Notes under the pieces: model-generated
Database searches by the model: none
The model's input: the letters and a program-made list of their open reading frames with translations, nothing else
What the model was told of the DNA's origin: nothing
In this document: piece by piece, positions 25,070 to 33,568 of the stretch
How the letters are laid out: each line of letters opens with the position of its first letter
Position numbering within the stretch: position 1 is the first letter of the stretch
Assembly: GCA_002162075.1 (NCBI GenBank)
Contig: CP021423.1
Location: forward strand, 2,542,001-2,606,000
Length of the DNA: 64,000 nt
Direction: 5' to 3'
From: Armatimonadetes bacterium Uphvl-Ar1
GTDB taxonomy: Bacteria; Armatimonadota; Fimbriimonadia; Fimbriimonadales; Fimbriimonadaceae
Position numbers and translations under genes: made by a program

Positions 25070-26987
25070 ATGGCAGCCGAAAAACTGTAATCGTCGTTGG
25101 CGGAGGACTCGCCGGCCTCATGACCACCATGAAGCTCGCAGAAGCCGGACACAAAGTCAAACTCTTCTCGATCGTCCCGGTCAAACGCAGCCACAGTGTC
25201 TGCGCCCAAGGCGGAATCAATGGTGCCGTCAACCTCCGTGGCGAAGGCGATAGCCCCTACCTCCATTTTGAAGACACCATCACTGGTGGCGACTTCCTCA
25301 ATCACCAACCTCCAGTCATGCGGATGGCTGAACGTGCACCCGCCATCATCTATCTCCTCGACCGAATGGGCGTTCCCTTCAACCGCACCGCCGAAGGCCT
25401 TCTTAGCTTCCGCCGTTTCGGTGGCACCCTCAAGCACCGCACCGCTTATGCCGGAGCCACCACGGGACAACAACTCCTCTACGCCCTGGATGAACAAGTC
25501 CGCCGCTACGAATCCAACCGCCAAGTCGAAAAGTACGAAGGATGGGAATTCATCGGCCTCATCAAAGACGAAAAAGGTATCTGCCGGGGAGTTGTCGCCC
25601 AAGACCTGCGCACAATGAAGATCGAATCGTTCACCGCCGATGCAACCGTCCTCGCCACGGGCGGAAATGGCGTCGTCTTTGGACGCTCCACCAATTCCAT
25701 CATCAATACCGGATCACCTGTCAGCATTTGCTACGAACAAGGAGCCGTCTACGGCAACCCGGAAATGGTCCAAATCCACCCCACGGCTGTCCCCGGTGAA
25801 GACAAGTGCCGACTCATGTCCGAATCCGTTCGCGGGGAAGGCGGACGACTCTGGGTTCCCCGTGACGTCAACGACAGCCGCAAACCGTTCGACATCCCTG
25901 AATCCGACCGCTGGTATTTCTGCGAAGAACTCGATCCCGTATATGGCAATCTCCTCAGCCGCGACCTCGTCAGCTTCATCATCTACTGCGTCTGCCGCAA
26001 AGGCATGGGCTTCAAAGGTCGCCAGCAAGTCTTCCTCGACATCACCCACTTGCACCACAAAAAAGGCATGTCCAAGGATCTCATCCGCGACAAGCTGGGC
26101 GGCGTTCTCGAAATTTACGAAAAGTTCATGCGCGAGGACCCCATCGACAATCCGATGCGCATCTATCCCGCTGTCCACTACACAATGGGCGGTCTCTGGG
26201 TGGATTACGAAACCACCGGGAACGACATCGGCCTCGATATCGACTCCCCGCGCAACCAACAAACCAACATCCCCGGACTCTACGCTGCTGGAGAGTGCGA
26301 ATACCAATACCACGGTGCCAACCGCCTGGGTGCCAACGCTCTCCTCACCTGTCTCACCGGTGGCGAACTAGCCGCCCAAGGTGTCCTCGCTTACCTCCGG
26401 AATCTCGACGTCGGTCACGAAGACCTCTCCAGCACCCTCGCCGAAGATGCCCGCAAGTTCCGCCAAGCCGAATACGATGGCCTCAAGGTCAGCAAAGGTT
26501 CCGAAAACCCCTACCAACTCGGGGCCGAACTCAGCGAAACAATGTGGAACTATTGCGGTATTTGGCGTCTGCAAAGTGAACTCGAGGGCGCGCGCGCCAA
26601 ACTCGACGAGCTCACCGTTCGAGCCGATCAGTGCAACCTCCTGGATGCTGGAAACTGGGCGAACCAAGCGGTCCCCTACACCCGCACTCTCAAGCATATG
26701 ATCGAAATGAGCAAAGCCATCGTCGGCGGAGCCATCGCCCGAGACGAATCACGCGGTGCCCACTTCAAACTTGACACCCCGAGCGAGATGATGACAAGTG
26801 GCTCTGCACCACCAAAGCCACTTGGAACGAGTCCGGCCCCACGTTCGATTTCAGCGAGAAAGTGGACGTCCGCGCTCTGTCACCTCGTCCGCGCAAGTAC
26901 AAAATCAATCAGAACACCGTCGCCCGATTCATCCTCGGCGACGACGTCCTTCCCAAGAAAAAAGAAGCCTCTACTCCCGGCGATTAA
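25070..26987 (+). CDS. sdhA: Succinate dehydrogenase/fumarate reductase flavoprotein subunit, two frameshifts
   Basis: FAD subunit of complex II, interconverting succinate and fumarate. The ATG at 25070 (MAAE) is out of frame with the FAD-binding VIVVGGGLAGL; one extra A in the A5 run 25080-25084 joins them. RSHSVCAQGGINGAV holds the FAD-linked histidine. HRTAYAGATTGQ, QIHPTAVPG, VHYTMGG and GANRLGANALL form the active site and FAD pocket. The end is again shifted at the C4 run 26777-26780; repaired, it reads through DKWLCTTKATWNESGPTFDF to a stop at 26987, 639 residues in all. No sdhB or sdhC lies nearby, which is odd for this enzyme. Confidence 0.9.
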
Positions 26988-27007
26988 CCATTGACCAGCA
27001 AAAGCCT

Positions 27008-29915: not shown

Positions 29916-31072
29916 TTGCCCACTCTCTACGAGACTCTCGGAATATCCCAACACGCAAACGCCAAGCAAGTACGCGAAGCCTATCACAAGCTCGCCCGGG
30001 AATATCACCCCGACGTCAATACTTCCCAAGACGCCCATGACCGGATGGCCGAAATCAACGTCGCCTTTGAAGTTCTCAGCGATCCGCTCCGCCGCAATCA
30101 ATACGACTCTAGCCTCGGTTACACGACTGCCGAACGAGAATCCCGTCAGCGAGAATCATCCCGCCCCACTGCCGTCGAAGCCGAAATCTACCGGCGACTT
30201 CGCCAACACAACACCCCAGTTTACGGAATCGGATTCGAACCTACAACCGGAAGAATGGTCTCGTCATCCTTCGATAACGAAGTCATCTGGTGGGACAAAA
30301 GGATCGAGAAACCAATGCGACGCCATAGATTTGAAGGCGGAGTTGTCAACGCCATCAGCATCCCTGGCGAACAACGTATCGTAGCCGCCGGTTCAACTGA
30401 ACAAATACTAAGCTGTTGGACACTCGGCCCCGAACGCCCTAATTCCTGGAGACAAACACCAAAAAGCTGGGTTTGCAGCGTCACCCCATCTCCCGATGGA
30501 AAATCACTCGCCTACGGCACCGTCAACCGATCCGTCCACATCGCCCGAACATCCGACGGATTTAACCAAGTCTCGACGTTCAGCCACGAAGAAGCTGTCA
30601 CCGCTCTCGCCTGGAGGTCTGATTCCGGAATGCTCGCTACCGGAAGTGCTGACAGCACCGTCCGGCTGTGGGATCCCCGGTCTGGACGTGAAATCAGTGT
30701 CATCAATCGGGTCATCAGCACCGTCACATCCATCGCCTTCAGCCCCAATAACAAATACCTCGCCGTCGCCGCCGTTGACCTCAGTATCCGAATATTCAAA
30801 CTGAGCGACCTCAGCCTCATCAAAACATTCTATGGGCACACCCGCCCAATCGAAGCAATGGCATTTCATCCCCGATCGTGGCTCCTCGGAACTGCTAGCC
30901 GGGATGGTGGAGTTGGCCTCTGGGATGTCCGCCGAGGGATCGGTCACGGCCAAATCGAAGCAAGCCACCAACCAATTTCTTGTATCGCCTTCTCCCCCAT
31001 GGCAAATATCTAGCCGCTGGTGGGCTGGACAAAATTCTTCGCGTCTGGCGTCTCAGTGCTTCTTACGAATAA
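29916..31072 (+). CDS. J-domain protein fused to WD40 beta-propeller, frameshifted near the end
   Basis: Residues 1-70 are a J domain with the essential HPD loop (KLAREYHPDVN) and FEVLSDPLRRNQYD, which stimulates DnaK-type Hsp70 ATPase. From about residue 95 to the end come WD40 blades (MLATGSADSTVRLWDPRSG, YLAVAAVDLSIRIFKLSD, LLGTASRDGGVGLWDVRRG). The listed frame stops at 31013, but one extra C in the C5 run 30994-30998 continues the last blade (HGKYLAAGGLDKILRVWRL) to 31072, closing the propeller at 385 residues. J domains fused to WD40 are rare; the propeller probably selects clients. It heads a likely operon with the two genes downstream. Confidence 0.85.
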
Positions 31073-31156
31073 GCCCTCAAGTCGCCAGAATCTTTGCCGA
31101 CAATCCCAGTAGGAGCTTTCTGACCTCAGGTTCAAAGCTCACAAACAGGATTAAAA

Positions 31157-32178
31157 ATGGCGGTTCAAAATATCGAGTGCCAGATCGCAACCGTGCTCAT
31201 GAAGCGGTATCTGGATGGGGACAACCTCCCGCAGAATCTGCTCGACGATCTCGAGCGGCATCTCAAGGCATGCCCCTCATGCCAAGCTATTCTCAATAAC
31301 GAACACGCAAACATCGAAGAAGTCCTCGACGGACCCGCCCCCGTCAAAGGTCTCGCCGGATGGATGGGCAAACTCGCAACCCAGCCCGCAACCGCCAGCG
31401 GATTCGTGACTGCCGGAGCGGGCGAAGCTCTTATGCAAGCCAGTTACCGCACCCAATACGCTCCACCGACCGGGCCCGGCATGGCCGTTCTCAAAAGCCC
31501 TAAAGTTCTTTTCCTTTCTCTCGCTCTTGCCGCGACCCTGATCGCAATGAGCACCATTCTTCGTAATCCTTCCGCTTTGCTCGGCCCTAAAGCCGCCGCC
31601 GGAGCCGCTGCCTCCTACACCGAACCCGCCGAAAAGACGGATGAAAAGGAGACCAAAGAGTCTCACGGAGAAGAAGAGCACAGTTCAGAGGAAAGTAGCT
31701 CCGAAGACCATAGCTCCGAGGAACACCATGCAGCGGAATCAACAGATCCACATGCAACTGCGGATGAAGTTCAACCCGATCACGGCGGGGAAGAGACCCA
31801 TACCAAAACCGATGAACACAAGACCGAATCTCACACCGATGCAAATCCCAAGACGCCCAAGTTTGAAGAAGTCAACGACCCTCGCGTCCCCGGCAAACCA
31901 ACAATCGATGACTCAGAACTGATCATTGCTGGTGGCAAATCCCCCAAAAACCACCCACAAAAACCGAAACCAAAACAGATTCCCACTCAGCCCCAAAAAC
32001 AGCTCCGAATCCAGCCGCCAAACCCCCGGCAAAGCCCGCAACGAAGTCAACGACAAAGCCACGAACAGCTTCAAGACCTCGAACGACCACATCAAAACCA
32101 AAATCAACTCCCGCCAAAAAACCCTCGGGAGGCGGAATCACAGTTTACGACGAGAATGGAAAGCCCATCAAAAATTAA
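31157..32178 (+). CDS. Anti-sigma-like zinc-finger membrane protein with His/Glu-rich region, frameshifted
   Basis: The N terminus is a zf-HC2 type zinc finger: C8, then YLDGDNLPQ and HLKACPSC, as in anti-sigma factors. A membrane helix follows (VLFLSLALAATLIAMST, near residue 118). After it is a long acidic, histidine-rich segment (HGEEEHSSEESSSEDHSSEE, residues 160-205) and then a Pro/Lys/Thr-rich tail. In the listed frame the tail runs to 32197, but one extra base in C5A5 at 31941-31950 gives a coherent tail ending GGGITVYDENGKPIKN at 32178 (340 residues). No sigma factor gene is adjacent. Metal binding by the His-rich part is inferred. Confidence 0.75.
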
Positions 32179-32193
32179 GAGAGAACAAAACCC

Positions 32194-32877
32194 ATGAAAA
32201 TCATCACCCCAATCGCCGCGCTCCTCATTGCCGCTACGGCATGGGGAAACCCCATCGTCGATGAATCAGCCAGCACGTCGGTCAAAACCGAAGGCACAAT
32301 AGTCAGCATCACAAGTAAAGGCGACGATGTTCGCAGCGTCCTCTACGACCTTTTTCGCCAAACCGGACACAATTTTGTCCTCGATGCGGGCGTCAGATGG
32401 GTGCTCTACCTTCACCTTGAAAAAGTGAGTTTTGAGCAAGCTCTCAGCATCGTCACGCAAAACGCGGAGATCGGTTACGAATTCAAAAACGGCGTCTACT
32501 ACATCGGTAAGAATCGCAAAACGACCAAACCCGTTGAAGCAAAGCCCAACCCTGCACCCCAAAACAAGCCGGAAGTAAAACCCACGGAACCAAAACCAAC
32601 GGACTCCAAACCGGCTGAGTCCAAGATGCTCACGGAAACTGATCTGCAAAAACGGCTCACCACTCGTTACAGCGTGACCCCAATCCGGAAAGTCTTCGAA
32701 GAATTCACTCGGCAAACCGGAATCAAAATTGAAGTAGATGAAAGCGTCCCCAACTACAAACTGGACGCATTCCTCATCGATACCAGCCTCAAATATGCAC
32801 TGGACGTCATCTGTGATGCCGCCAAGCTCCGATGGATCAAAACCGACAAAGGCACGATCCGCATCGAAAAAGCATAA
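32194..32877 (+). CDS. Exported protein with two secretin/STN-type N-terminal domains
   Basis: 227 residues with a signal peptide (AALLIAATAWG). Two copies of a small alpha/beta fold like the secretin and TonB short N-terminal (STN) domain are visible: VRSVLYDLFRQTGHNFVLD... (residues 48-105) and IRKVFEEFTRQTGIKIEVDE (residues 155-225), each followed by an ALxxV helix. They are joined by a Pro/Lys-rich linker (residues 108-145). No secretin pore follows, so it may be an adaptor in the periplasm. It begins 15 bases after the zinc-finger gene and is closed by a strong terminator. Confidence 0.75.
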   Translation: MKIITPIAALLIAATAWGNPIVDESASTSVKTEGTIVSITSKGDDVRSVLYDLFRQTGHNFVLDAGVRWVLYLHLEKVSFEQALSIVTQNAEIGYEFKNGVYYIGKNRKTTKPVEAKPNPAPQNKPEVKPTEPKPTDSKPAESKMLTETDLQKRLTTRYSVTPIRKVFEEFTRQTGIKIEVDESVPNYKLDAFLIDTSLKYALDVICDAAKLRWIKTDKGTIRIEKA

Positions 32878-32890
32878 ACTAGCAGAGTCA

Positions 32891-32932
32891 ATAGCGTCCT
32901 CGCTCAAACGAACGAGGACGCTATATTTTTAA
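32891..32932 (+). terminator. Rho-independent terminator of the DnaJ-WD40 operon
   Basis: 12-bp perfect stem ATAGCGTCCTCG / CGAGGACGCTAT (32891-32902 and 32913-32924) with a 10-base loop, followed by ATTTTTAAA. Lies 14 bases past the STN gene stop. The convergent HAD gene ends inside the loop. Confidence 0.85.
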
Positions 32933-33568
32933 AGAACTCTAAATTCGCCTCCGCCAAGGATGTCAATTGATAATCCGCTAACGATAAATCGAATTGCTGC
33001 GTGACCGAATTGGGAACCGCGACCGCCGTCATTCCCGCACGCTTTGCCGCCAAAACGCCGTTCGGCGAATCTTCAAACGCCACCGAGACCGATGGGTCAA
33101 CCCCGAGTGCCTCGCAAGCGGAAAGGTAGAGAAGTGGATCGGGTTTTTTGCGCCCCACCATGTCCCAAGTGCGAATCATCGGGAACCGATCGCGCGCCCC
33201 AAAATTTTGCAAAATCCGTCAACCCACAAACTCCGCGAACTCGATGCAATTCCGTACTTGATTCCTTCTCTGTCCAGAAAGTCGAATAACTCAACTGCCC
33301 CCGGCTGCCAGCCAATATTGATCAGAACGGCATCCCGCAACTCATGCGCCCGCCTTCGCGCCCAATCGAGATCAACACCGTGGACTAACTCTGCCAAGTG
33401 CTCGTCAACTCGCCAAGGGGGATTCCCCCCGCCGACGCATTTTGCCCACTCATTCATATTCAAAATGGAGCCAGCTTCCTGAAAAACCTGGCTCCACGCA
33501 TCAAACTCCGGCGTCTCAGTGTCAACCAAGAGCCCGTCAAAATCAAAAACTACTGCGGCAACAGGCAC
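32904..33568 (-). CDS. HAD-superfamily phosphatase, beta-phosphoglucomutase-like, frameshifted
   Basis: Haloacid-dehalogenase hydrolase of the CbbY/phosphoglucomutase subfamily. Motif I is VVFDFDGLLVDTE (nucleophile Asp and acid/base Asp), motif II is IASSSRS, motif III the Lys in GRKKPDP, and motif IV is VAFEDSPNGVLAAKRAGM. Motifs III and IV are in another frame: one extra base in the C4 run 33197-33200 makes a continuous 221-residue protein, normal for the family. Substrate, probably a sugar phosphate, is unknown. It follows the histidine kinase gene on the same strand, sharing one base with its stop codon. Confidence 0.87.

What the first reader, a model, noticed from the sequence alone, without database searches (positions are those of the whole stretch)
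29916..32935. J-domain/WD40 fusion, zinc-finger His-rich membrane protein and double STN-domain protein in one cassette
Three genes are close together and end at a strong terminator. One couples Hsp70 stimulation (HPD motif) to a propeller; the next has an anti-sigma-type zinc finger inside and an acidic, histidine-rich region outside the membrane; the third has two secretin-type N-terminal domains with no pore. No sigma factor or secretin is adjacent. The combination looks like an envelope-stress or protein-quality device that spans cytoplasm, membrane and periplasm. The function is not inferred from any known system.
Basis: inference. Interest (0 to 1): 0.6.

Follow-up and report, generated by a model that had tools for sequence, protein, structure and literature searches.

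The report
Flagellar-promoter zinc-finger and STN pair
The supposed three-gene cassette is really a chance neighbour plus a conserved pair of cell-envelope genes that a flagella-bearing order of Armatimonadota keeps together and appears to switch on with the flagellar sigma factor, so the pair probably serves the flagellum rather than a stress response.

Summary
All three genes are real, but the cassette is not. J-WD40 is a single-copy gene found in all 25 sampled genomes of the family. It lies next to the other two genes in only 6 of 8 genomes of this genus, and beside unrelated genes elsewhere.

The zinc-finger membrane protein (ZF) and the double-STN protein are the unit, adjacent in all five Fimbriimonadales families sampled. 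ZF starts from its own conserved leader, which carries a promoter of the sigma28 (FliA/WhiG) type. A matrix built only from flagellin promoters scores 21 of 24 ZF leaders, including the window's sister copy, above all 320 control upstream regions. All 39 flagellin-bearing genomes have the pair; the two without flagellin lack it, as does the probable genome of non-motile Fimbriimonas ginsengisoli.

Best reading: a late-flagellar envelope pair, with a cytoplasmic anti-sigma-like zinc finger, one membrane helix, a disordered tail ending in a conserved hairpin, and an exported STN adaptor. Relay versus motor accessory is undecided. Docking of the tail on STN was tested and not supported. The histidine-rich stretch is not conserved. 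J-WD40 and ZF carry one-base deletions here, probably assembly errors. One family lacks the promoter and the STN signal peptide, which is unexplained.

The parts
29916..31072 (+). J-WD40: J domain (HPD) fused to a WD40 propeller; neighbour, not part of the unit. Printed ORF stops at 31013 because one base is missing near 31001; stop in the sister's frame is 31070-31072.
   Evidence: Pfam, sister alignment, orthologs
31075..31104 (+). sigma28 (FliA/WhiG)-type promoter CCTCAAG-N14-TGCCGACAAT, 2 bases after the J-WD40 stop
   Evidence: 16.3 bits with a matrix from flagellin promoters; controls at most 14.1
31105..31156 (+). rest of the conserved leader of ZF: variable hairpin and conserved block before the start codon
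   Evidence: covariance model finds one strong copy per genome
31157..32178 (+). ZF: anti-sigma-type zinc finger, one membrane helix, low-complexity tail. One base missing near 31941; printed ORF runs to 32197.
   Evidence: Pfam zf-HC2 above cut-off; sister alignment
31178..31282 (+). zinc-finger segment C8...H35-x3-C39-x2-C42
   Evidence: the four ligands are invariant in the alignment of ten orthologs
31499..31564 (+). predicted membrane helix of ZF (residues 115-136)
   Evidence: AlphaFold helix 115-136 of the sister protein; hydrophobic sequence
32137..32175 (+). conserved C-terminal hairpin motif ITVYDENGKPIKN of ZF, out of frame in the printed ORF
   Evidence: third frame; present in orthologs of all five families
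32194..32877 (+). STN protein: signal peptide and two STN/N0 domains
32287..32520 (+). first STN domain (PilQ-N0-like)
   Evidence: VIA-align and PDB sequence profile
32629..32874 (+). second STN domain (FecR_C-like)
   Evidence: Pfam FecR_C; fold
32891..32930 (+). intrinsic terminator
   Evidence: 12-bp G+C-rich stem then T run, z -6.3

Best explanation
ZF-STN is a two-gene operon of the late flagellar (sigma28) regulon of Fimbriimonadales; J-WD40 is an unrelated neighbour. When the hook-basal body is finished and FlgM no longer holds sigma28, the operon is transcribed together with late flagellar genes. ZF sits in the inner membrane with a zinc-bound helical domain in the cytoplasm and a disordered tail outside that ends in a conserved hairpin; STN is exported and offers two N0/STN docking surfaces. 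The most likely job is to couple an envelope or motor component on the periplasmic side to a cytoplasmic partner of the zinc finger, as part of flagellar function. Shown by sequence: the pair, its gene order, the promoter type, the domains, and co-occurrence with flagellin. Inferred: use of the promoter by the FliA/WhiG sigma, membrane topology, ZF-STN contact, and the coupling role.
For: Adjacent pair in families f1-f5 with changing neighbours. Leader found as one strong copy per genome, at ZF. A matrix trained only on six flagellin promoters puts 21 of 24 ZF leaders above all 320 control regions; of 17 sites of at least 18 bits in 1.1 Mb of scanned strand, 16 are ZF leaders. The genome has a FliA/WhiG sigma (2.6e-70) and FlgM. 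Pair in 39 of 39 flagellin-positive and 0 of 2 flagellin-negative relatives (Fisher p 0.0012). The probable F. ginsengisoli genome lacks an STN ortholog, and that species is non-motile. STN fold like secretin N0 and like sigma-regulator STN domains.
Against: Family f2 is flagellated and has the pair but lacks the sigma28-type promoter and the STN signal peptide. The two flagellin-negative genomes are incomplete, and one has FlgM. Most sampled f1 flagellin genes lack a strong site themselves, so the regulon in the window's own family is thinly sampled. In most genomes the pair is not beside flagellar genes. No evidence that ZF and STN touch.
Confidence: 0.55

Rival explanations
1. ZF is a true anti-sigma factor made under sigma28. 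It holds an unlinked ECF sigma (or sigma28 itself), and STN is the split-off periplasmic sensor that releases it, like PupR/FecR cut into two proteins.
For: zf-HC2 of the ZAS type above cut-off, ligands invariant; STN fold matches PupR and BDI_1681; 25 Sigma70_r2 proteins in the genome.
Against: No sigma factor adjacent in any locus examined, while the two other zf-HC2 hits of this genome lie with ECF genes; FlgM is present for sigma28; ZF gave no significant PDB fold match; docking on STN not seen.
Confidence: 0.2
2. ZF and STN are a structural accessory of the flagellar motor or its passage through the envelope, comparable in role to late-expressed motor-ring proteins; the zinc finger is only an anchor or assembly handle.
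For: Late flagellar promoter type, exported STN, N0-type domains that build ring assemblies in secretins.
Against: The zinc ligands are kept in all families, which suggests more than an anchor; f2 STN has no signal peptide; no similarity to a known ring protein was found.
Confidence: 0.2
3. One reading: J-WD40, ZF and STN form one envelope-stress or protein-quality unit.
For: Same strand and close in 6 of 8 genomes of the genus.
Against: J-WD40 lies beside unrelated genes in other genera; ZF has its own promoter.
Confidence: 0.03
4. The pair serves type IV pili or another secretin system, sharing sigma28-type control.
For: First STN domain is closest to PilQ N0; a prepilin-like gene follows a similar promoter in L047 and in L141.
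Against: F. ginsengisoli is rich in pilus genes yet lacks the STN ortholog; pair tracks flagellin; the secretins lie elsewhere in the genome.
Confidence: 0.1

Closest known systems
PupR/FecR-type cell-surface-signalling sigma regulators (PDB 6ovk; PMC7186176)
   Same: Membrane anti-sigma-type protein working with periplasmic STN domains; the STN fold matches (Z 9.9).
   Different: Here the STN domains are a separate exported protein; no sigma factor or TonB-dependent transducer is adjacent; the promoter is sigma28 type.
ZAS (zf-HC2) anti-sigma factors
   Same: Cytoplasmic Cys...His-x3-Cys-x2-Cys zinc finger before one membrane helix.
   Different: Orphan gene without a cognate sigma next to it; long tail with a conserved terminal hairpin; partner is an STN protein.
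PilQ/GspD secretin N0 domains
   Same: First STN domain resembles PilQ N0 in sequence and fold (4ar0, 4.6e-8; Z about 10).
   Different: No secretin pore domain; the protein is two STN domains only.
sigma28 (FliA) late flagellar genes
   Same: Promoter TAAA-N15/16-GCCGAYAA as on flagellin genes of the same order.
   Different: I know of no described late flagellar gene with this domain pair (own knowledge; paper searches showed none among the titles listed).

Membership tests
sigma28 (FliA/WhiG) regulon | promoter of the TAAA-N15-GCCGATAA type | tested here: met
   Matrix from flagellin promoters; 21 of 24 leaders above all controls. Not met in family f2.
sigma28 (FliA/WhiG) regulon | a FliA/WhiG sigma factor in the genome | tested here: met
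   TIGR02479 2.6e-70, 236.6 bits against a cut-off of 189.6
sigma28 (FliA/WhiG) regulon | transcription depends on sigma28 | not testable with these tools
   needs an experiment
ZAS anti-sigma factor | zf-HC2 zinc finger with all ligands | tested here: met
   24.3 bits against a cut-off of 22.2; ligands invariant
ZAS anti-sigma factor | encoded next to its sigma factor (usual, not strictly required) | tested here: not met
   none adjacent in the loci examined
ZAS anti-sigma factor | anti-sigma domain fold | tested here: inconclusive
   no significant Foldseek match for the ZF model
ZAS anti-sigma factor | binds a sigma factor | not testable with these tools
   needs a binding assay
PupR/FecR sigma regulator | STN domain at the C-terminus of the membrane regulator itself | tested here: not met
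   the STN domains are a separate ORF
secretin (PilQ/GspD) | secretin pore domain | tested here: not met
   only STN and FecR_C matches, one N0 match in one ortholog
STN domain superfamily | STN/N0 fold | tested here: met
   VIA Z 9-11 to secretin N0 and PupR STN
J-domain proteins | HPD motif in a J domain | tested here: met
   7.4e-20; HPD in 28 of 28 orthologs
classical DnaJ (full-length chaperone) | full-length DnaJ match including the C-terminal domains | tested here: not met
   76.4 bits against a cut-off of 377.2, residues 5-76 only

The most novel reading that the evidence does not exclude
A second, membrane-bound checkpoint in the flagellar hierarchy: a FecR/PupR-like regulator split into two proteins, expressed late from a sigma28 promoter, that reads the periplasmic state of the flagellum through STN domains and controls a cytoplasmic partner, perhaps an ECF sigma, through a zinc-finger anti-sigma domain.
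Probability: 0.15. Interest if true: 0.8.

Novelty: new variant of a known kind. Interest (0 to 1): 0.5.

Why it matters
It would add an undescribed envelope pair to the late flagellar regulon of a poorly studied bacterial phylum, and suggest that anti-sigma and STN parts known from iron signalling were recruited to flagella. Genus g35, where about half of the sampled genomes lack the STN ortholog, offers a direct test by gene loss.

Tried and rejected
Three-gene cassette: rejected by gene order.

Leader as an RNA switch: a GACAATCC/GGATTGTC pairing looked attractive, but covariation is not above shuffles, RNAalifold predicts no pairs, own-versus-other complementarity hardly differs (12.4 against 11.3), Rfam finds nothing, and the 5' arm is the promoter -10. 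A local hairpin of variable sequence remains.

ZF tail docking on STN: AlphaFold on the natural in-phase read-through ZF-stop-STN of the sister genome gave the terminal motif a pLDDT of about 75, but ZF alone gave 78-79. No evidence for docking.

ZF as the missing anti-sigma28: FlgM is present in 38 of 41 relatives. Fold of the ZF domain: Foldseek found nothing significant. Strict sigma28 patterns for a wider regulon: few non-ZF hits; such exact patterns are too strict to count a regulon. STN protein on plasmids: none.

First matrix run used wrong spacers and is superseded.

Frameshifts as programmed: thought unlikely, since each is a base missing in or beside a C run, the sister is intact, and the assembly appears to be an early SMRT draft.

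Full report
WHERE IT IS. The window lies in a 2,985,450-base single-contig genome. Relatives found by name are mostly Fimbriimonadaceae, Armatimonadota. Size, single contig and family fit Uphvl-Ar1 (CP021423), a PacBio draft reported with complete flagellar pathways (PMC5629041); window GC is 53.8% against a published 52.5% for the genome. This identity is inferred, not proven.

THE GENES. J-WD40 has a J domain with HPD and WD40 repeats; ZF has a zf-HC2 zinc finger; STN has two weak STN-type matches. The close sister genome G006 shows that the window copies of J-WD40 and ZF each lack one base in or beside a C run (near 31001 and 31941). As a result the printed ORFs lose the last WD blade and replace the real ZF C-terminus by an out-of-frame tail. 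The real end, GGGITVYDENGKPIKN, matters: a motif of the form I/V-x-V/I-Y/F-D-x-x-G closes most ZF orthologs in all five families examined. The zinc ligands are.

NOT A CASSETTE. J-WD40 is a single-copy gene in 25 of 25 sampled family genomes and in most f5 genomes, with HPD in 28 of 28 orthologs. It adjoins ZF only in G000 and G003-G007 (in G007 seen on a contig end), and in other genera it is flanked by unrelated genes. In G001 and G011 it lies beside the Lon-N-like and histidine-kinase genes that in the window lie beyond ZF-STN and a HAD gene, so ZF-STN seems to have been inserted next to it.

THE PAIR. ZF and STN are adjacent in families f1 to f5 with varying neighbours. The leader in front of ZF is conserved at nearly fixed length. 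A covariance model finds one strong copy per genome at ZF and only marginal hits elsewhere (G036 has a second copy, close to a contig end).

PROMOTER. The leader contains CCTMAAG-N15/16-RCCGACAAT. Flagellin genes of the order carry CCTAAAGA-N-GCCGATAAT at a similar distance from the start. A matrix made from six of these, without any ZF leader, puts 21 of 24 ZF leaders above all 320 control upstream regions (maximum 14.1 bits; the sister copy and the window 16.3; Mann-Whitney p 2e-16). In 1.1 Mb of scanned strand, 17 sites reach 18 bits; 16 are ZF leaders and the other precedes a prepilin-like gene. The rows are related, so the p-value overstates independence. The genome has a FliA/WhiG sigma (2.6e-70, above cut-off) and FlgM, whose upstream region has a 14.7-bit site. 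Flagellin genes of the sampled f1 genomes mostly lack a strong site.

CO-OCCURRENCE. Flagellins occur in 39 of 41 relatives. All 39 have the pair. G020 and G040, the two without flagellin, show no pair (Fisher p 0.0012). Both are incomplete genomes and G020 has FlgM. G053, a 5,231,762-base single contig, is probably F. ginsengisoli (5.23 Mb, non-motile, the word flagellum absent from its genome paper, one fliA; PMC4072686). Its best STN match is a different, single-STN protein. In its genus about 9 of 20 genomes lack a strong STN match; their flagellin status could not be searched.

STRUCTURE. Both STN domains are predicted well (pLDDT mostly 77-92) and match secretin N0 domains and the STN domains of sigma regulators (EscC Z 11.0, BDI_1681 10.9, PilQ 10.3, PupR 9.9). 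ZF is a short helical domain, one long membrane helix, disorder, and a terminal hairpin. Docking of the hairpin on STN was tested with a natural in-phase read-through of the two genes and its control, and is not supported.

MECHANISM. Shown: gene order, promoter type, domain content, link to flagellin presence. Inferred: transcription by sigma28 after hook completion; ZF with its zinc finger inside and tail outside; STN in the periplasm; coupling between a periplasmic flagellar or envelope component and a cytoplasmic ligand of the zinc finger. Anti-sigma relay and motor accessory remain rivals.

UNEXPLAINED. Family f2 is flagellated and has both genes, with overlapping stop and start, but lacks the sigma28-type promoter and the STN signal peptide. 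STN of families f2 to f5 carries an extra C-terminal zinc ribbon. The conserved block between hairpin and start codon has no assigned role.

Noticed in passing
window 26900-26994, 31001, 31941, 33176-33212: Several genes look frameshifted (end of the succinate dehydrogenase flavoprotein, J-WD40, ZF, a HAD hydrolase split in two), fitting an unpolished long-read assembly.
   Followed up: partly
L238, L240, L285, L287, L288, L047 (family f2): STN orthologs of one family start without a signal peptide, overlap the ZF stop codon, and have no sigma28-type promoter.
   Followed up: partly
L036, L037, L039, L043-L045, L291: Outside the window's family the STN protein carries a C-terminal zinc ribbon (CxxC...CxxC) although it has a signal peptide.
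   Followed up: no
L042, L046, L060, L061, L066, L292: Some STN proteins of the window's family end in a short N-R/H-V/I-x-V tail that looks like the terminal motif of ZF.
   Followed up: no
J-WD40 orthologs, L068-L097: J domain fused to a WD40 propeller, one copy per genome, HPD in 28 of 28; the paper search listed no described counterpart by title.
   Followed up: partly
   Followed up: no
window 31105-31156 and L139, L144, L145: Conserved block AAAACCTMAAGTGGATT between leader hairpin and ZF start, partly a reverse complement of the promoter -10; no structure or function established.
   Followed up: partly
L057 (G014): A flagellin gene lies about 2.2 kb downstream of the STN start in this relative.
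   Followed up: no
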